NCBI GenBank assembly: GCA_022925895.1
Contig: JAKSYS010000350.1
Span: 1 to 62,999, forward strand
DNA length: 62,999 nt
Source: Fragilaria crotonensis
Lineage: Eukaryota > Bacillariophyta > Fragilariophyceae > Fragilariales > Fragilariaceae
Direction of reading: 5' to 3'
Of this stretch, positions 6,682 to 54,856 are shown one piece after another. The notes below the pieces were generated by a model. The model was not told where the DNA came from. It searched no databases and saw only the letters and a list, made by a program, of their open reading frames with translations. The position numbers and the translations under genes were made by a program. Positions within the stretch are counted from its first letter, which is position 1, and the number at the start of each line of letters is the position of its first letter.

Positions 6682-6931
6682 GATTAACTAGAGTAGTGTC
6701 TTTGTCGATTCGAGTTCGTTCGGATTGTGAGCAATTCGTATCTTGTGTAGTAGTGTCTTTGTCGATTCGAGTTCGTATTAACTAGAGTAGTGTCTTTGTC
6801 GATTCGAGTTCGTTCGGATTGTGAGCAATTCGTATCTTGTGTTGTGTTGTGTCGTGGTGTTCGTCTGTCTGTGTCTCGTGTTCGTCTGTCTGATGGCGAC
6901 TGCCCGTCCTTTCCCGATCTTCGGACATGCC
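6682..6931 (-). repeat. A1 split direct repeat with partial internal duplication
   Basis: Positions 6777-6931 match A2 (383-537). In front lies an extra partial copy (6682-6748) and a third short fragment (about 6747-6776), so TAGTGTCTTTGTCGATTCGA occurs three times. The terminus CGGACATGCC at 6931 marks the element end against the LINE sequence. Confidence 0.78.
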
Positions 6932-9900
6932 AGGCTCGTGAGACGCTCGGTAAAGTTAAACCTGCTGAACGACGGCCAACATGGATCAGTTCCAGGTAGG
7001 ACCACCATGGACCCAGTCATGTTGAACCAATTGACGACCGATCTGTGCCGATTGTTAAAGATTAACTACGTTCGCTTCGACAACGACGCTTCAGCCTGTT
7101 TCGACAGGATAATTGTTGCTCTTGGAATGCTCGCAGCACGTCGGTGCGGTATGCCATTCGAAGCAGTGCGAACACATTCCAAAGCTCTGGAGTTAATGCA
7201 ATATATGGTAAAAACCATGTATGGCGTTTCTGATGACTCGTACAGGGGTACGGCACTGGAACCATTATTCGGGACGGGACAAGGAAGTGGGGCATCTCCT
7301 GCAGTATGGCTTTCACTGGTGGTTCTTCTGTTAAACACGATGGAAAAAGTAATCCCAGATAGAATTACTTTTAAATCGGCGGACGGGAACATTGTACATC
7401 CACGACTCGTGGATGCTTTTGTCGATGATACCGCCATTGGATTGACGGATTCAGGTGGATTGGATATGCCAGAACTTATTGCCTCTCTGGAAAAGGTCGC
7501 ACAAACCTGGGAACAGCTTCTCCATTTCTCGGGAGGCGCCTTAAATTTAAACAAGTGTTCGTGGTACGTCATGTTTTGGGATTGGCGCCAAGGACGACCA
7601 CACCTCAGGGAAATTGACATAAATGATCCGAAAATTCGTCTGTCTCAAGGGCTCAACAACCACCATAAGGTTGTGATACGACGACAACCGTTGAGTACAT
7701 CATCCCGGATATTGGGCGTGCACCAAACGCCCCTAGGAGATTTTTCTGATCACATCACGGTACTGAAGAAAAAGGCAGATCAATACGCAAGTCACTTAAG
7801 ATCACCTCGATTAACTCTTACCGACATAAAGGTTTTCCATCGGTCCGTTTATTCTCCGGCTATGCGATACTCGCTTCCCGCATTAGCGGTGGACGAGGAG
7901 GAACTTGAACGTGTGCAGTCCAAAATTATTCCAACTATTGTTCAACGAATGGGATTTTCCAGCAAAATGTCAACTGCTATCCGCTACGGACCCACATCAA
8001 TGGGGGGATTGAATCTAATGGATCTCCGCACAGAATGCGGCATCGAAATGATCAAATACTTCAGACATGAAGTTTATGGCAACACAAAAGTCGGACAACT
8101 TCTTTTGCTCCAAGTCCAAGCTTCACAATTGGAGTCTGGGCTCCCGGTTAATCTTTTGGAGGAACCAACCGTTCACAACCCATATCTCACACCGACATGG
8201 ATTTTGTCAATGCGACAGTTCAAGTCCAACCACAATATTCTGATTACGGTGACGGATCCATATCAAGTTAGACTCAACAGTCCAACAGACCAGCACATCA
8301 TGGATTTGACCCGACTCAAGGGATATACAACTCGACAGCAAAAAGACATAAATCTGGTTCGTATTCACCTGCAGTCGTCCACCCTGTTTGATCTCGTGGA
8401 TCGCCAGGATAACACCAAAATTGCAAAATGGGCAATGGAAGCTCGGAGACCAGCGACTTTCCAAGATGACACGGCATGCATGGCCTAGGCAAGCAGAATT
8501 GGGGGCGTCAATGAAACGATTATGGAGGAGATACATATCTTCGCAATTTCTGCGATACGACCGATTCTGGAGAGAACCGCCATGCAAAGAGAATCGAAGT
8601 CCAGGCGACGTCTCTGTTTTTGCAAATCCTTCAAATGCTGGAACCGGATCATCCATCTCTCGGGCAATCAAACAACTTCCAAGGCATCGTCGACGACTTC
8701 TGTCGCATGTTCGGCAGCTGGCATCATCCGAGCGTATGTGGGAGGCATGTCAAACAAAACAGACGCTGACAATTGCTTCAGATGGTGGACTAAAAGGCCG
8801 TAAAGGGACGTTCGGGTGGTTAGTGACAACACCCTCTGATGAGATTCTGGTGGAAGGAGCTGGTCCGGTCGATGGTCCCTTCAACACGGCAAATTCCACT
8901 CGGTGTGAACTTGGAGGCTATGCTGCTTCGTTATTATATCTCGCGCTTTTACATTCGGTGTGGGGTAAACGACACAAATGCAGGTTCCGATGGCTCACAG
9001 ACAGCAAAGGTGCGATTGCCAAGGTACAGAAACACTCCAACCATAATGTCCACATCAAACAAAGACAACCGAGTAATGCGGATTACCTAGGTATCATTCA
9101 ATTGGAGACATCAGCAATACGTCGGAGGATCAAAACAGAATGGGTGAAAGGCCATCAATCGATGAAAGAAGGACAAGGTAATCGCCGAGACATCAAATGG
9201 AATCACCATGCCGACAAATTGGCCTCGTGGTACCGTGATCAGACCAACCAAAGGCAATCGGTCGAACATACTGAACATACTCCCGAAGCACGTGTCTCTA
9301 TCATCATCAACGGCGTGCGGGTTGTGGGCCAAGAAGAGGCATCCTCACGATATCACATCAACGGATATCATCTTCGGCAGTATATCCAGTCGCGACAGAA
9401 GTGGACAAACCAAGTATGGGACAGGACTGATCTCGAGGTATTTGGAACTTTTCACAACCGGCTGTCACCCAGTGCGCAGATCGCTCATACGAAATTCGCT
9501 TTCGAGCAATGGTGTACAGGGACCAAACGTTTTCGCATCGCGCCTATCAAAGACGACAATCTCGACAAGTGTCCATGTTGCAAGGAACATGAAAACTGGC
9601 AACATGTGCTACGATGCCGTCAAAACCCGGATCGCACTAAGACTTTGACTGAACTGGCAAAGAGACTAACTCCGACAGAATTTCAACCAGTGTTCACGTT
9701 ACTGAGAGACGGGGTACTGACATGGCTTGAAGGAAATACATACGATCCTGACATCTCCGGTTTTCCTATGAAATTGTGGGGTATCATTCGAAACGCGTTA
9801 TCTGACCAAGAACAGATTGGTTGGCAGAACGCAATGAAAGGTTACTTGAGCGTCGAGTGGCGAGCCATTGCTGAGACGGATCCATATGGAACTGCCATTA

Positions 9901-10256
9901 TGACTCAAGAAGGGAAGGGGATTCACACTCTCCGAACAATATTGATACATGTTAATCAGGCCACCCAATGTCTATGGAAAGCCCAAAACAACCTCCTGCA
10001 TCAATCAAATGAGGCAGAAATGCAACTTGTCCGGGATTCGGAAATCGCAGAGATTCGAGAGATGCATGCAAGCATAGAAAAGATTCCTGCAGCCAATAGA
10101 CACTACTGTGAACGATCACTTGATGTTCTTCTCAAGAAAAATCATTCTTCGCGGAGAAGGTGGTTACGTTATATGAGGATGGCGAGAGCCCGCATGGAAC
10201 AAGATGGCAAACGTCAACTACTTTTGACCCAATTTTTTCGACCTGTTAGTATTTGA
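6932..10256 (+). pseudogene. LINE reverse transcriptase / RNase H polyprotein (one frame change)
   Basis: The RT part (6932-8488) shows GQHGSVPGRTTMDPVMLNQL, YVRFDNDASACFDRI (first catalytic Asp), GTGQGSGASPAVWL, and the catalytic box AFVDDTAIG. The RNase H part (about 8390-10256) shows TIASDGG, CELGGYAAS, WLTDSKGA and HHADKLASW, which supply the D-E-D-D set. A C-x2-C-x7-H-x4-C knuckle and a C-terminal domain of about 200 aa follow. The first frame stops at 8488 while the second is open across 8388-10256. The protein reads smoothly if the frame shifts near 8470, so either one nucleotide was gained or lost or the element uses a frameshift. No endonuclease domain is in the window. The N-terminal residues of the long ORF before 6932 belong to the inserted YR repeat. 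Confidence 0.72.
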
Positions 10257-12640: not shown

Positions 12641-14749
12641 TTACACAATCTTTTCAATCGTAATGAACCCTCGGCGAGTCGATTCGCATCCCAACATGAC
12701 GGTTGCACTCATGTAGTCAAGCTCTGTCTTGGCGTTCAAGTATTCAGGTGGAATCACGTCCTGAGCACGTGGAAAGTCCCACTTGCCACACGCGTCCAAG
12801 GTTTGAAGGGACTTGTAGAGCAACGACGTCGATACCCATGCGTTGGGATATTTGTACTTGGCCACATCCATGACCAAGAACGCGTCCATAACTGGTGAGA
12901 AGGCACCCAGGGGGCTAAAATGTCCACCACCAGCCTGGCCAACGCCCTTGCGATCAAAGTTGATCATAACTCGGGCTTTCGTGTTGGCCAATGCTTGTTG
13001 TAAGATGCGACGGAAATCTTCAATGGACAAAGTGAAAGGATCGACGTGATGAACGCTTACATTCCATGCCTCTTTGTCCAAGTGGCATTCCAACAATGCC
13101 TTAGTCTGAAGCATGCTCAAGCCTCCGGGAGCTTTAAAGATGCCATCAAAGGAGGCGTTCCTGCGAATCACGTGCGAGTTGGTGCAGTGGTTAAACATGT
13201 CAGCCTGGGTAGCGTATGGATGAGGATTGTAGATTGGGTCAATAGGGAGTTCGATGTCACCACGAAACGAGTTAAGGATGGCAGCAGATGTCGCTACCGC
13301 ACAGTATGCTTGATTAATCTGCGCATCAAATCCTTGTTGAATCAAGAAGTAGTCGTGCGCAAAGTCAATGAATGCGATACCACCGTGCGCCAACATCCGG
13401 TACGCATCGGTAGTGTTTAAGTAGATCACAAATTCAGGCAGCTCTTTATGCCGATGTGTCACGTTATACCACCAATCCTCAATCTTGTGATCCGTTTCGT
13501 TCCAAGATTCAGCAGTGCGGTCGACTGTGTGTTCGATCAAATCATCGACGTGATGAAACCACGCTGTCGCCTTTTGCTCGGTGGTGTTCCACCAAACTCC
13601 AATTCTTTCTTCTTCGCCGTTGAACCATCCGCCTGTTTCGTGTTCTGTCTCGTTCCACCATTCGCCCGACGCATATTCCTCTTCCTTTACCCAGGAGGAT
13701 GCTTTGCGTTCAGTCTCATTCCACCACTCAGCTGTCTTGTGCTGTTCGTCGTTAAGCCAAGCCGCAACGTCATGCCCCGTCCGATTCCACCATTGCTCTG
13801 TTTTGTGTTCTTCATCGCTGAGCCAGTCGGCACTTTCGTGTCCTGTTTCGTTTAACCACTCGGCAGACTTACGTTCTTCGTCGCTCAGCCAACCGGCGCT
13901 TCCGTGTACGGTTCCATTTAACCACTCAGCAGAGCTATGTTCTTTATCCTCTAACCAACCGGCAGTTCCGTGTTCTGTTTTGTTGAACCACTCGGTAGAC
14001 TTGTGTCCTGCCTTGCCTATCCAGTCAGCCGTTTTGTGCTCTGTCTTGTTCCACAAATCGATAGATTTGTGCCCATTTCCATCCAGCTTTTGTTCCGTCG
14101 CATTCCACCATTCCGATGTTCGTTCCTTCCCAGTATCGACGAACTCCTCTGTTCTTTTCGTAGTCTCGTTCCACCAACCGGCGCCGGATCCGGGTTTAGC
14201 CTGTTCGTGCTTGAGCCACTCTGATGTACGTTTGTTCTCGGCGTCGATAAAGTGCGCCGCCTTTAGGGTTGTTTCATTCCACCACTCGGCAGTTTGTTCA
14301 GCAAAGTTTTTCCACCAGCCCCTGGTCTTCTCTTCAATCAACTGCGAATCTTGATGCAAGGTGTCCTTGTACTCGTTCCACTTCATGTTAGTTTCGTTCC
14401 AGAAGGGACCCCATATATCTGCAATCCTTCGTTTCCATTCGTCCATTCGATCAAATTGAGCATCTACTGACTCAAACATTCGATCGTGAAGCCTGGTTTT
14501 GTCGAACAACTTTGATTCTTCCTCGATGCCTTCCTGATTAAGGTCGACAATGGTAGGTTGCGAAGAACTACCGCGAGAATACGCGACGCGGACGGAAACG
14601 ACAATTGCTGCAAGGATGACCAGCACGTAGAACAATCCCAGTCTGGAATCGTGCCGCTCCTCCTCCATTGACCTGTCATCGACGCGTGATGCCGGAGCAA
14701 CCAGAGGTTGGTGCTCGGGGAGTATGGACTGATAATTCTTCCTGTTCAT
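12641..14749 (-). CDS. Membrane-anchored phytochelatin synthase-like protein with hendecad-repeat stalk
   Basis: A single uninterrupted ORF of 702 aa from the ATG at 14749 (MNRKNYQSIL). The longer upstream reading lacks protein character. Residues 36-58 form one hydrophobic segment (LGLFYVLVILAAIVVSVRVAY) with no cleavage site evident, suggesting a type II anchor. Residues 145-436 are an 11-residue repeat of the form WWNETEHKTAE / WLSDEEHKSAE with about 14 N-x-T sequons. Residues 440-700 match phytochelatin synthase (peptidase C83): catalytic Cys483 in QAYCAVATSA, His610 in AGGGHFSPLGAF, Asp628 in FLVMDVAKYKYP. The His-Asp spacing of 18 equals that known for plant PCS. The domain is short, like the cyanobacterial form, without a Cys-rich C-terminal half. 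The family role is transpeptidation of glutathione into metal-binding phytochelatins, or glutathione hydrolysis. Lumenal or extracellular orientation is inferred from the sequons. Catalytic assignment is strong; the fusion appears unusual. Confidence 0.85.
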   Translation of the reverse strand: MNRKNYQSILPEHQPLVAPASRVDDRSMEEERHDSRLGLFYVLVILAAIVVSVRVAYSRGSSSQPTIVDLNQEGIEEESKLFDKTRLHDRMFESVDAQFDRMDEWKRRIADIWGPFWNETNMKWNEYKDTLHQDSQLIEEKTRGWWKNFAEQTAEWWNETTLKAAHFIDAENKRTSEWLKHEQAKPGSGAGWWNETTKRTEEFVDTGKERTSEWWNATEQKLDGNGHKSIDLWNKTEHKTADWIGKAGHKSTEWFNKTEHGTAGWLEDKEHSSAEWLNGTVHGSAGWLSDEERKSAEWLNETGHESADWLSDEEHKTEQWWNRTGHDVAAWLNDEQHKTAEWWNETERKASSWVKEEEYASGEWWNETEHETGGWFNGEEERIGVWWNTTEQKATAWFHHVDDLIEHTVDRTAESWNETDHKIEDWWYNVTHRHKELPEFVIYLNTTDAYRMLAHGGIAFIDFAHDYFLIQQGFDAQINQAYCAVATSAAILNSFRGDIELPIDPIYNPHPYATQADMFNHCTNSHVIRRNASFDGIFKAPGGLSMLQTKALLECHLDKEAWNVSVHHVDPFTLSIEDFRRILQQALANTKARVMINFDRKGVGQAGGGHFSPLGAFSPVMDAFLVMDVAKYKYPNAWVSTSLLYKSLQTLDACGKWDFPRAQDVIPPEYLNAKTELDYMSATVMLGCESTRRGFITIEKIV
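13442..14317 (-). repeat. Coding tandem repeat: 33-bp units encoding Trp-anchored 11-mers
   Basis: Inside the phytochelatin-synthase-like gene, Trp recurs exactly every 11 residues from residue 243 to 397 (15 consecutive repeats), with looser copies on both sides. Units alternate between a sequon type (W-W-N-x-T-E-H-K) and an acidic type (W-L-S-D-E-E-H-K), giving a 22-residue higher-order period. The register resembles hendecad helices of LEA group 3 or apolipoprotein-like proteins, here Trp-rich. Confidence 0.85.
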
Positions 14750-30229: not shown

Positions 30230-31993
30230 ATGAACTCCCGAAACATTTCTGCACTTATCATTAATCAATTGATGAGGAACCTTCATTCCGAAGCAAGAGA
30301 CGAACCAGTAGCCTATTTTGACGACATTGACTCCTGCTACCGTGATGATGGAACACTTGATTGGGATCGCCTGGAGGACTTCCTTGGGAGAGAGGACGAA
30401 GAAGATACGGCAAAACAACAATACCTTTTAACGTTAATGTGCTTGTGTGCAAGCGCTAAAATGGAGGAAACTGCTAGAAGTGTGCATCAAAAGAAAGCTA
30501 CCATTCAGACACCGAGGGTCAAGAAGTCACGAAAGCGACGACCGAAGTACTTTGTGGACCCATCAACAGGTAAAAAACGAAAGTTGACGCCAACAATCAG
30601 TCTTTGGTGGATTTTGTACTTGCAAAATCCTCAGCCAAATTGCTCTCGGTGGTCTCAGACGTTTCGAAATCGCTTTCGTTTGCCATATCAGTCATATCTG
30701 GATCTTTTGTCGATGCTGAAGGACGAAGATGACGAGGGGCTGTTCTGTAGATGGACCGGATGGACCGATCAGCAGCAGAGGAATTGCCAACCCGCCTTTA
30801 CTAACAATGCAGTGCCTTTGAAAGTGTCGCCAATAGAACTTCTATTGTTGGGAAGTTTAAGATACCTTGGTAGGGGGATCACTTTTGACGACGTTGAAGA
30901 GGCAACTTTCATCAGCCGCCATGTGCATCGTGATTTTTTTCACAAGTTTGTTGCGTTTGGAGCCAGCAAGCTGTATACGAAGTATGTACGAATGCCAACA
31001 TCTTTGGAGGAAATCAGAGAATGCGAGCACGCCTACAGGATTGCCGGATTCCCAGGTTGCATTGGTAGCACCGATGCAACCCACATCCCGCTTGAGAAAG
31101 TTTCCTTCACGATTCGGCAGAGTCATCTTGGTTTCAAAATGGGAGCTACGACACGAACATACAATCTAACAGTAAACCACAAAAGGCAGATTCTGCATAC
31201 GACAACAGGCCACCCAGGTCGGTGGAACGATAAGACCCTTGCAAGGTTTGATCACTTCCTGGACGAGCTTCGAAAAGGAAGTTTCGATGAAAAGATAACC
31301 TTTGATTTGTTGGACAAGAGTGGAACAAAGACCATTGGCATGAAAGGAGCCTACGTCATCGTGGACAACGGATATTTAGAGTGGTCATCAACCATTCCGC
31401 CTTTCAAAAACTCATCGAGTCGATCGGAAATTCGTTTCTCACAATGGTTGGAGTCTTTACGTAAAGATGTCGAGTGTACGTTCGGTATATTGAAGAATCG
31501 ATGGAGGATTTTAAAAACTGGGATTCGGATGCATAACACGGAAGTTGCTGACAATGTCTGGTTAACCTGTTGTGCACTTCATAATATGTTACTCGATGTT
31601 GACGGATTGTCGGTTGGATGGCAAAACGGTGTACCCTCGTATTGGCAAGTCGAGGCAAATGGACAGTTTGAGTTATCAGATATGCCGCGTGCCATTCAGA
31701 GGTTGATTTCTCCTTCTGAAGTGCGAGACTTCCTCACGATGGATCGAAGTTCATGCGGGTGGCGTTACCATGCTGACAACTGGGTAGAAGAGGAAGAAGT
31801 AGAAAACGACGTTGCTCCTGATGACGACCAGATTAGAAACGACAGCAGTCATGGTGTCGTTTCGGTTTCCAAGTTATCGCATCGGGAATTTCGGGGATTG
31901 CTCGTTGATAATTTCAACGCCCTGTACCACCAAGGGAGGGTTTCTTGGCCGAAGAGGCTCCCAGTTGCGCCAAGAAACGTGCCTTCGTACTAG
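30230..31993 (+). CDS. PIF/Harbinger-type transposase (DDE_Tnp_4)
   Basis: A 587-aa intact ORF. The catalytic core shows GCIGSTDATHIPLEKV (first Asp, about residue 285), YVIVDNGYLEW (second Asp, about residue 385), and RKDVECTFGILKNRWRIL (catalytic Glu, about residue 421). These are characteristic of PIF/Harbinger and the HARBI1 family. The N-terminal about 120 residues include a basic stretch (KKSRKRRPKYF), probably the DNA-binding or nuclear targeting part. An acidic patch follows the core. The full-length uninterrupted frame suggests recent activity or host domestication. Its partner ORF runs convergently at 32079-33902, stop codons about 85 nt apart. Confidence 0.9.
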   Translation: MNSRNISALIINQLMRNLHSEARDEPVAYFDDIDSCYRDDGTLDWDRLEDFLGREDEEDTAKQQYLLTLMCLCASAKMEETARSVHQKKATIQTPRVKKSRKRRPKYFVDPSTGKKRKLTPTISLWWILYLQNPQPNCSRWSQTFRNRFRLPYQSYLDLLSMLKDEDDEGLFCRWTGWTDQQQRNCQPAFTNNAVPLKVSPIELLLLGSLRYLGRGITFDDVEEATFISRHVHRDFFHKFVAFGASKLYTKYVRMPTSLEEIRECEHAYRIAGFPGCIGSTDATHIPLEKVSFTIRQSHLGFKMGATTRTYNLTVNHKRQILHTTTGHPGRWNDKTLARFDHFLDELRKGSFDEKITFDLLDKSGTKTIGMKGAYVIVDNGYLEWSSTIPPFKNSSSRSEIRFSQWLESLRKDVECTFGILKNRWRILKTGIRMHNTEVADNVWLTCCALHNMLLDVDGLSVGWQNGVPSYWQVEANGQFELSDMPRAIQRLISPSEVRDFLTMDRSSCGWRYHADNWVEEEEVENDVAPDDDQIRNDSSHGVVSVSKLSHREFRGLLVDNFNALYHQGRVSWPKRLPVAPRNVPSY

Positions 31994-54046: not shown

Positions 54047-54856
54047 ATGGTGTCTACCGGCGGCGGTCGAATCGCATTCTTGTTGGTCGTCTTCTTATCC
54101 GCGCATAGTACACAAGCGTTATCGACTTTCGGTCGACGCGAGGTAATCCATGCAGCAATTTTGGCATCCACGACGTCGATGGTACCGACGTACTCAATCG
54201 CGGAAACGACAACAACAACATCCGGCAACACTGTTAGTGCGATCCCTTATGAATTGCGAGATCGGCGCGGAAATAAGGATGCCTTGATTCGAGAAGATTA
54301 TTGGTACATGATGGGGAGGGCACCTCCTCGACTCATGGGTGAGGGAATGATGAAGACTGATAATCCGCAATGGAATACATTTGGGACGTGCGAATCATCG
54401 GGCGGGACCAACAGTTGCACCTACGTGTCTATCAAGCAGCAGCGCATTCCCGCATATTCGAAATATGCATTTTTGATTCAATTAGGCGCCAAAGACTATC
54501 GAAGGCTCGGGGTGGCTCTGGACAACGCTGACTGGGAGACTGCGGAATCGCTGCTGTCGTCTGCTACATCGGTCCCGCCTCCAGCAATTGATGCGCTGCT
54601 GAAAATGATTCTCTTCGCATCGAGCATGCTGACATCCCCAAATTATAGTGGACCGAATCGAGAATTGCTTGTGGCACGTTTCTATGTGAATGAATGCGGC
54701 TTTGCTACGAAAGAAGTAGCGTCCGCAGTGGAAGCGCGAGATTTGAATCGAGCCAAGGCAGCGTGGGACTTTGGTCGAGACTCGTGGAATTCCTATCTTA
54801 CCATTGTAAACCGACAAATTACTCCCAAAGTAGGCGACAAGTTCGAACTAATATAA
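54047..54856 (+). CDS. Thylakoid-lumen helical-bundle protein (PsbQ/Psb31-like)
   Basis: A 269-aa single exon. The leader is tripartite: an ER-type signal peptide MVSTGGGRIAFLLVVFLSAH ending near TQALS; then STFGRREVIHAAILASTTSM with a twin arginine and hydrophobic segment; then a probable lumenal cut near YSIAET. This order targets proteins into the lumen of a complex plastid by the Tat route. The mature part contains mainly amphipathic helices (YAFLIQLGAKDYRRLGVALD and WETAESLLSSA with later helices). The last helix pair includes NRAKAAWDFGRDSWNSYLTI. A four-helix bundle behind such a leader is what PsbQ-family extrinsic photosystem II proteins, including diatom Psb31 and PsbQ', look like. 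The family assignment is by pattern only. Its stop lies 23 nt from the convergent carboxylase stop. Confidence 0.6.
   Translation: MVSTGGGRIAFLLVVFLSAHSTQALSTFGRREVIHAAILASTTSMVPTYSIAETTTTTSGNTVSAIPYELRDRRGNKDALIREDYWYMMGRAPPRLMGEGMMKTDNPQWNTFGTCESSGGTNSCTYVSIKQQRIPAYSKYAFLIQLGAKDYRRLGVALDNADWETAESLLSSATSVPPPAIDALLKMILFASSMLTSPNYSGPNRELLVARFYVNECGFATKEVASAVEARDLNRAKAAWDFGRDSWNSYLTIVNRQITPKVGDKFELI

What the first reader, a model, noticed from the sequence alone, without database searches (positions are those of the whole stretch)
12641..14749. Phytochelatin-synthase domain fused to a membrane anchor and a sequon-studded Trp-hendecad stalk
Seen: one open frame encodes a hydrophobic segment (36-58), an 11-residue repeat stalk (145-436) and a PCS catalytic domain with Cys483, His610 and Asp628, the His-Asp spacing equal to plant PCS. 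Known: peptidase C83 enzymes are soluble and act on cytosolic glutathione. Inference: about 14 N-x-T sites and a type II anchor would place this catalytic domain in the secretory lumen, vacuole or outside the cell, where metal chelation or glutathione processing by such an enzyme would be a new arrangement.
Basis: partly seen in the sequence, partly recalled or inferred. Interest (0 to 1): 0.9.

Follow-up and report, generated by a model that had tools for sequence, protein, structure and literature searches.

The report
Stalked membrane phytochelatin-synthase relative of diatoms
Diatoms carry a relative of the heavy-metal-detoxifying enzyme phytochelatin synthase that appears to be anchored in a membrane and held, on a long sugar-coated stalk, in the vacuole or outside the cell rather than in the cell fluid where this enzyme is normally placed.

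Summary
One open frame (12641-14749, minus strand, 702 aa) encodes an N-terminal hydrophobic anchor, a Trp-rich 11/22-residue repeat with 14 N-x-T sites, and an intact PF05023 domain (E 3e-39). It is no chimera: 71 of 120 listed family sequences (itself included) are W-rich and stalked, one from an MMETSP transcript.

Family evidence favours a lumenal or extracellular enzyme. Sequon N445 is kept in 71/71 with a varying middle residue. N-x-T is about 4-fold enriched in stalks and stalked catalytic domains, but not in E-form PCS. Before the anchor, 86 of 94 tails carry a YxxPhi or [DE]xxxL[LI] sorting motif (25 expected); a di-leucine of this type targets the diatom vacuole. Flanking charges of this protein itself disagree.

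The domain is the known NsPCS-like 'N-form'. A 2024 paper lists this class in diatoms but could not predict localisation. Bacterial relatives mostly look exported, so export itself is not new.

Best reading: a type II, N-glycosylated vacuolar/endosomal enzyme, arranged like gamma-glutamyltransferase, removing glycine from glutathione-type peptides. Activity, compartment and stalk shape are untested. New variant of a known kind.

The parts
12641..14749 (-). whole coding sequence, 702 aa plus stop, one uninterrupted frame
   Evidence: start supported by relatives P0002 and P0004
14645..14749 (-). N-terminal tail, residues 1-35, predicted cytosolic
   Evidence: sorting motif in 86 of 94 anchored family sequences against 25.4 in shuffles
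14723..14734 (-). YQSI, residues 6-9, YxxPhi-type sorting motif
   Evidence: a YxxPhi at the same place in P0002, P0004-P0009; many other relatives have [DE]xxxL[LI] instead
14576..14644 (-). hydrophobic segment, residues 36-58, proposed signal anchor
   Evidence: KD 2.57; AF2 helix 36-58
13454..14437 (-). Trp-rich repeat stalk, residues 105-432; 22-residue units (two 11-mers) in its regular part, one N-x-T per unit
   Evidence: predicted helical with low confidence
13807..14002 (.). 66-bp tandem repeat, 3.0 copies, DNA level of the 22-aa unit
12644..13432 (-). catalytic domain, residues 440-702, N-form phytochelatin-synthase fold
13301..13303 (-). catalytic Cys483
   Evidence: 70 of 71 stalked sequences (1 gap), 48 of 49 others (1 Ser)
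12920..12922 (-). catalytic His610
   Evidence: 71 of 71 and 49 of 49
12866..12868 (-). catalytic Asp628
   Evidence: 70 of 71 (1 gap) and 49 of 49
13184..13186 (-). Cys522, invariant, proposed disulfide partner of Cys555
   Evidence: 71 of 71 and 49 of 49; the E form C284 also has Cys at this column
13085..13087 (-). Cys555, invariant
   Evidence: 71 of 71 and 49 of 49; the E form C284 also has Cys at this column
12788..12790 (-). Cys654, at the start of a 33-residue stretch (655-687) that is much shorter in Alr0975
   Evidence: 69 of 71 (2 gaps) and 49 of 49; gap in C284; Alr0975 hairpin
12686..12688 (-). Cys688, at the end of that stretch
   Evidence: 68 of 71 (3 gaps) and 48 of 49 (1 gap); gap in C284
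13415..13417 (-). Asn445, sequon NTT at the start of the catalytic domain
   Evidence: N-x-S/T in 71 of 71 stalked sequences, middle residue varies
13157..13159 (-). Asn531, sequon NAS
   Evidence: N-x-S/T in 58 of 71
13061..13063 (-). Asn563, sequon NVS
   Evidence: N in 27 of 71, all 27 followed by x-S/T

Best explanation
A type II single-pass, N-glycosylated membrane enzyme of the diatom endomembrane system. The short N-terminal tail stays in the cytosol and carries an adaptor-type sorting motif (YxxPhi here, acidic di-leucine in many relatives). The hydrophobic segment is an uncleaved signal anchor. The Trp-rich 22-residue repeat forms an amphipathic helical spacer with a glycan on the polar face of each unit. 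The N-form (NsPCS-like) papain-fold domain sits at its end in the vacuolar/endosomal lumen, probably held by two disulfides. There it acylates Cys483 with the gamma-Glu-Cys part of glutathione, glutathione conjugates or phytochelatins and releases glycine; hydrolysis (salvage or degradation of thiol peptides and conjugates) is likelier than chelator synthesis. Shown: the parts, their conservation, the predicted fold. Inferred: topology (strongly), compartment (moderately), reaction (by homology), disulfides and stalk geometry (weakly).
For: Topology. Sequon N445 in 71 of 71 stalked sequences with 8 different middle residues; N531 in 58 of 71. Of nine alignment columns where Asn reaches 35%, only 445, 531 and 563 are sequons; the other six give 0 or 1. 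N-x-T in stalked catalytic domains 173 against 44.7 shuffled, in stalks 543 against 121.4; in the 120 listed relatives of the own E form 120 against 109.0. Sorting motifs in 86 of 94 tails against 25.4; [DE]xxxL[LI] 51 against 4.9; in the E-form set 28 of 120 against 35.0. C-minus-N charge difference negative (type II-like) in 58 of 94. Cys654 and Cys688, absent from the E form C284, are present wherever the column is aligned, and 62 of 71 stalked domains have exactly five Cys.

Compartment. A di-leucine motif directs a protein to the diatom vacuole (Schreiber 2017, seen only as cited in PMC11085791 and PMC9964374).

Stalk. Length differs by exactly one 22-aa unit between otherwise near-identical P0004 and P0006; sequon Asn lies over 120 degrees from the hydrophobic face in 486 of 603 cases against 323 of 720 for other Asn.
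Against: Charges around this protein's own anchor (N side -2, C side 0) do not favour type II; 27 of 94 family sequences are positive too, 9 zero. Of the 71 stalked sequences 13 show no usable anchor with Met start and tail; incomplete gene models are likely but not shown. A hydrophobic N-terminal stretch is not peculiar to this family: 18 of 84 E-form-set proteins with enough sequence pass KD 1.6 as well (33 more were too short). Cys522 and Cys555 also occur in the E form, and PMC11314372 predicts disulfides in E forms too, so those two Cys say little about location. The vacuole is not distinguished from endosome, plasma membrane or silica deposition vesicle by these motifs; PMC9964374 adds that vacuolar di-leucine seems to need a signal peptide. 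YxxPhi, the type in P0001, is only about twice its expectation (51 against 21.9). Sequons inside tandem repeats are not independent. The 49 other relatives show no N-x-T excess in the catalytic domain (22 against 33.9) and little in the linker (27 against 15.4), so glycosylation is not essential to the family. The stalk helix has low confidence (pLDDT 45.5 alone), and an 11-residue period fits 131 degrees per residue as well as 98. No activity, substrate or localisation was measured.
Confidence: 0.6

Rival explanations
1. Same topology, but the final place is the plasma membrane, cell wall or frustule: an ecto-enzyme that trims external glutathione or metal-thiol ligands, with the tail motif serving endocytic recycling.
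For: YxxPhi and [DE]xxxL[LI] are also endocytic signals (recalled). A PCS gene, Phatr3_J48175, is co-expressed with iron-starvation ISIP genes in P. tricornutum (PMC5156380, passage). The E form there is listed as Phatr_24704 (PMC11314372 table), so that gene is presumably the N or the D form.
Against: The di-leucine type dominates in many relatives and is the documented diatom vacuole signal. No wall- or silica-binding domain found by Pfam in P0001 or the 8 relatives scanned.
Confidence: 0.25
2. Same topology, but a true phytochelatin synthase: it uses the acyl-enzyme to lengthen phytochelatins inside the vacuole, where metal complexes are stored.
For: Cavity residues are conserved; Alr0975 itself makes some PC2.
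Against: The C-terminal Cys-rich domain of eukaryotic PCS is absent (the protein ends 14 residues after Cys688). The same genome has separate E and D forms that fit that job. The nearest characterised relative favours hydrolysis.
Confidence: 0.15
3. Opposite orientation: the N-terminus faces the lumen, and stalk and catalytic domain stay in the cytosol, tethered to an organelle.
For: Flanking charges of this protein's own anchor, and 27 of 94 family sequences in all.
Against: Sequon conservation with variable middle residues, and sorting motifs that work only on the cytosolic side.
Confidence: 0.05
4. Assembly chimera or decayed gene joining a stalk protein to a PCS gene.
For: Repeats and transposable-element-like frames lie nearby.
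Against: The same order in relatives on many contigs, in the Fistulifera solaris and Epithemia gene models and in an MMETSP transcript, P0011; no stop inside; triad kept.
Confidence: 0.01
5. The repeat is not a spacer but a membrane-surface amphipathic helix of the 11-mer kind, lying flat on the lumenal leaflet with its Trp stripe in the lipid and the glycans pointing away. (A variant of the main reading, so its odds overlap with it.)
For: Trp stripe with sequon Asn on the other side; Trp prefers membrane interfaces (recalled).
Confidence: 0.3

Closest known systems
NsPCS / Alr0975 of Nostoc sp. PCC 7120 (6th5, 2btw, 2bu3, 6tho, 6tjl)
   Different: Its cyanobacterial relatives have a signal-peptide-like N-terminus and only the catalytic Cys downstream of it; no long tail, stalk or Cys654-Cys688 stretch
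Diatom N-form (group 1) PCS of PMC11314372: P. tricornutum XP_002184892.1 (735 aa) and T. pseudonana AGE13359.1 (340 aa)
   Same: QINQAYC motif, 5 Cys, and N, D and E forms side by side in both species; G000 has the same three
   Different: The passages seen describe no anchor, stalk, sequons or location; their sequences were not compared here, so identity of class is inferred from the table. The T. pseudonana disulfide Cys164-Cys184 given there spans 20 residues, Cys522-Cys555 here 33
Eukaryotic E- and D-form PCS (AtPCS1-type)
   Same: PF05023 catalytic core and triad; Cys at the columns of Cys522 and Cys555
   Different: E-form set: no sequon enrichment, 10-15 Cys in 100 of 120; separate branch of the tree (split support 0.76)
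gamma-Glutamyltransferase (works like, not a member)
   Same: Membrane-bound glutathione-degrading enzyme of plasma or vacuole membrane in eukaryotes (PMC10295655 passage); type II glycoprotein arrangement (recalled)
   Different: Unrelated fold (recalled); cuts the gamma-glutamyl bond, whereas a PCS-type enzyme cuts the Cys-Gly bond
11-mer repeat helices (LEA group 3, synuclein, perilipin)
   Same: 11-residue amphipathic period (resemblance recalled)
   Different: No Pfam match to the stalk up to E 1; a sequon in every second 11-mer and Trp in nearly every one

Membership tests
PF05023 / peptidase C83 (phytochelatin synthase) | Pfam model over its cut-off | tested here: met
   134.9 bits against 24.9
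PF05023 / peptidase C83 (phytochelatin synthase) | Cys-His-Asp triad and oxyanion Gln | tested here: met
   C483, H610, D628 and Q477; columns invariant or nearly so
PF05023 / peptidase C83 (phytochelatin synthase) | Papain-like PCS fold | tested here: met
Metal-activated eukaryotic phytochelatin synthase | C-terminal Cys-rich domain | tested here: not met
   protein ends at residue 702, five Cys in all
Metal-activated eukaryotic phytochelatin synthase | Metal-dependent synthesis of phytochelatins | not testable with these tools
   needs an enzyme assay
N-form (group 1, NsPCS-like) PCS | Asn-Gln ahead of the catalytic Cys | tested here: met
   P0001 reads INQAYC; family NQ in 104 of 120, NE in 1, 15 not classified by the pattern
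N-form (group 1, NsPCS-like) PCS | Branches with NsPCS-like bacterial enzymes rather than with E/D forms | tested here: met
   tree of 166 sequences rooted by choice on 41 E/D-set sequences: diatom N-forms group with bacteria; split support 0.76, diatom clade 0.805, diatoms plus three bacteria 1.0
N-form (group 1, NsPCS-like) PCS | Glutathione to gamma-glutamylcysteine activity | not testable with these tools
   needs an enzyme assay
Type II N-glycosylated membrane protein | Single hydrophobic segment near the N-terminus, after a tail | tested here: met
   helix 36-58 after a charged 35-residue tail; that it is not cleaved was not tested
Type II N-glycosylated membrane protein | Positive-inside charge bias | tested here: inconclusive
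   P0001 opposite; family 58 for, 9 neutral, 27 against
Type II N-glycosylated membrane protein | Selected glycosylation sequons C-terminal to the anchor | tested here: met
   for the stalked sequences; occupancy itself not testable here
Diatom tonoplast proteins with acidic di-leucine | [DE]xxxL[LI] in a cytosolic tail | tested here: inconclusive
   51 of 94 family tails have it; P0001 itself has YQSI instead

The most novel reading that the evidence does not exclude
Diatoms turned an exported, bacterial-type glutathione deglycylase into a vacuolar (or cell-surface) stalked glycoenzyme. The stalk is a new structural module: a Trp-striped 22-residue helix with one N-glycan every six turns on the face opposite the stripe, lengthened or shortened in whole units, that self-associates or lies on the membrane and holds the enzyme at a set distance in the lumen. 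Thiol-peptide and metal-complex processing would then run in the lumen, apart from cytosolic phytochelatin synthesis.
Probability: 0.4. Interest if true: 0.75.

Novelty: new variant of a known kind. Interest (0 to 1): 0.62.

Why it matters
Phytochelatin synthase is described as cytosolic (PMC9265389, start of abstract in the listing), and diatoms matter for marine metal cycling. A lumen-facing form found in both pennate-type and Thalassiosira-type diatoms would mean that glutathione or phytochelatin breakdown has its own membrane enzyme, would help explain why diatom genomes keep three PCS forms, and gives a ready target in the model diatom P. tricornutum (XP_002184892.1, class inferred from a table). 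The stalk offers an unusual natural glycosylated repeat helix for structural study.

Tried and rejected
Chimera or annotation error: rejected by relatives and a transcript.

Stalk on other enzymes: a protein search with residues 100-432 found 9 proteins, P0001 and 8 relatives, all of this fused family; a six-frame search of the own genome found only this gene. Word-based searching of a repeat may hide others.

Plastid targeting by a bipartite leader: disfavoured because in most relatives listed the hydrophobic segment lies 30 or more residues from the start; no dedicated predictor was available.

Stalk as a confident coiled coil: not shown (pLDDT 45.5 alone; 31-60 in residues 181-380 of the full model).

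Genomic neighbourhood: 24 frames of 220 aa or more listed, 9 of them scanned with Pfam: RNase H, DDE transposase, PPR protein, aldehyde dehydrogenase, biotin carboxylase, four without a match. No metal or thiol gene among these nine. The bacterial promoter scan is not informative for a diatom.

First scan of genome contigs with the diatom alignment gave no confirmed locus; the second, with the Alr0975 fragment, gave 56. NCBIfam gave nothing for 4 proteins.

Rows dropped: one search used 94 of 120 family sequences (26 without Met start, anchor or a tail of 8); with a looser anchor threshold used 58 of 71 stalked and 43 of 49 others; one search used 57 of 71 stalked and 47 of 49 others because a motif pattern failed on the rest. 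One search took 54 of the 56 loci. Of 12 matching loci (398 genomes searched), 8 were examined for a signal peptide. Homolog lists show 120 of 132 and 120 of 1638 hits. 'Stalked' means at least 15 Trp in the protein and rank up to P0109.

Claim not in print: the stalk/anchor architecture was not met in searches of the held open-access library, of which I saw listings, and passages or one section of nine papers.

Full report
What is there. The window is the whole contig C281 of a 62.1-Mb genome. The minus-strand frame 12641-14749 encodes 702 aa. Residues 1-35 are a charged tail, 36-58 a hydrophobic helix, about 105-432 a Trp-rich repeat, and 440-702 a phytochelatin-synthase domain (PF05023, E 3e-39).

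Not unique. A search with residues 440-702 gave 132 proteins, 120 listed, P0001 among them. Where an organism is shown it is a diatom (Fistulifera solaris, Epithemia clementina, Cyclotella atomus, Skeletonema marinoi, Thalassiosira exigua, Conticribra weissflogii, Cyclostephanos tholiformis); most entries are unnamed. By a threshold of 15 Trp, 71 of 120 are stalked. P0011 comes from an MMETSP transcript and carries tail, anchor, stalk and enzyme. A stalk-only search found only this family, and the own genome has the stalk only here.

The own genome has three PF05023 genes. By the residue ahead of the catalytic Cys they are an E form (C284, SEPAYC), a D form (C497, SDPAFC) and this N form (INQAYC). 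PMC11314372 (passages, section 13 and part of Table 1 seen) reports this N/E/D trio for diatoms, lists P. tricornutum XP_002184892.1 as a 735-aa N form with 5 Cys, notes two conserved Cys and a predicted disulfide in the T. pseudonana N form, and states that cell localisation could not be predicted. Term searches in its main text found no 'signal peptide', 'transmembrane', 'secret' or 'glycosyl'. So the class is known; the anchor, stalk and glycosylation pattern are what this work adds. One caution: the Cys164-Cys184 distance given there for T. pseudonana (20) is shorter than Cys522-Cys555 here (33).

Topology, for. First, sequons: N445-x-S/T is in 71 of 71 stalked sequences while the middle residue varies; N531 is a sequon in 58 of 71 and N563 in 27 of 71; six other columns rich in Asn are almost never sequons (0 or 1). 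N-x-T is enriched 543 to 121.4 in stalks and 173 to 44.7 in their catalytic domains over composition shuffles; N-x-S is not (97 to 111.0; 64 to 63.4). In the 120 listed relatives of the own E form N-x-T is 120 to 109.0. Second, tails: 86 of 94 anchored sequences have YxxPhi or [DE]xxxL[LI] before the anchor, 25.4 expected; with a looser anchor threshold and the first 45 residues of the tail, 54 of 58 stalked (15.5 expected) and 36 of 43 others (8.6); E-form set 28 of 120 (35.0 expected). Third, cysteines: C522, C555, C654 and C688 are kept wherever aligned in 120 sequences, bar one or a few gaps, and 62 of 71 stalked domains have exactly these plus the catalytic one. C654 and C688 bracket a stretch that in Alr0975 is a short turn between Asp225 and Arg232 (alignments; the role of those two residues in gamma-glutamyl binding is recalled). 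Fourth, ancestry: 47 of 54 cyanobacterial relatives pass a hydrophobic-segment threshold at the N-terminus and the other seven look similar by eye (the first possible start codon was taken); 7 of 8 proteobacterial-type loci look signal-peptide-like by eye. In a 166-sequence tree rooted on the E/D set, the diatom N forms sit with three such bacterial sequences (support 1.0; two of the three with a signal-peptide-like start) and apart from the E/D set (split support 0.76).

Topology, against. Flanking charges of this protein's anchor do not favour type II; of 94 sequences 58 favour it, 9 are neutral and 27 do not. Thirteen of 71 stalked sequences show no usable anchor. Hydrophobic N-termini also occur in 18 of 84 E-form-set proteins. 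Cys522 and Cys555 are shared with the E form, and E-form disulfides are predicted too (PMC11314372). The 49 non-stalked relatives show no sequon excess in the catalytic domain (22 to 33.9) and little in the linker (27 to 15.4).

Compartment. An acidic di-leucine (EGTPLL, C-terminal, in cystathionine beta-synthase) targets a diatom protein to the vacuole (Schreiber 2017, seen only as cited in PMC11085791 and PMC9964374). Many relatives have close look-alikes (SERTRLLP, DERRALLG). P0001 has YQSI instead. Vacuole or endosome is therefore the first guess, with plasma membrane next.

Stalk. In the regular part (225-400) each 22-residue unit reads roughly [WLF]-N-x-T-E-H-K-T-A-x-W-[LFVI]-x-D-E-E-H-K-S-A-E-W; N-x-T is at the same place in all 8 units. 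P0004 and P0006 differ by one whole 22-residue unit. On an alpha helix the sequon Asn of the W-rich sequences lies on the polar side: mean 158 degrees from the hydrophobic moment, 486 of 603 beyond 120 degrees and 22 within 60; other Asn 323 of 720 and 132. This suits a glycosylated helix, but the period alone does not fix the helix type (98 and 131 degrees fit alike), and AF2 confidence is low.

Verdict. What is unreported in the sources I could search is the stalked, sorted, glycosylated architecture. Localisation in the diatom and an enzyme assay would settle it.

Noticed in passing
window 6821-10256 +: Overlapping frames that look like a reverse transcriptase (by eye; no Pfam match) and an RNase H (PF00075, E 1.6e-4, below its cut-off): perhaps a LINE-like element beside the gene.
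   Followed up: partly
window 30230-31993 +: DDE transposase (PF13359, PF04827), 587 aa, uninterrupted frame.
   Followed up: partly
window 13581-14354 +: A 257-aa antisense frame mirrors the stalk repeat; probably a by-product of the repeat codons, no other evidence of a gene.
   Followed up: no
L003/L004 (G000 C497): The D-form PCS is split between two overlapping frames, so it has an intron or a frameshift there.
   Followed up: no
P0079-P0120 (relatives): Most of these, several named as Thalassiosirales, keep tail motif, a weaker anchor and all Cys but have a shorter linker with few Trp or sequons: stalk gained in one lineage or lost in the other.
   Followed up: partly
L067: This bacterial PCS-like protein has a lipobox-like segment (MLTAC), so some relatives may be lipoproteins (by eye).
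   Followed up: no
literature, PMC5156380: P. tricornutum PCS gene Phatr3_J48175 is co-expressed with iron-starvation ISIP genes; it is presumably the N or the D form. If N, this family may belong to iron uptake or storage (passages).
   Followed up: partly
P0049: Its precomputed annotation lists PF28068.1 besides PF05023, which the Pfam copy here did not report.
   Followed up: no
window 54047-54856 +: 269-aa protein whose start looks like a plastid-lumen leader by eye; no Pfam match.
   Followed up: no
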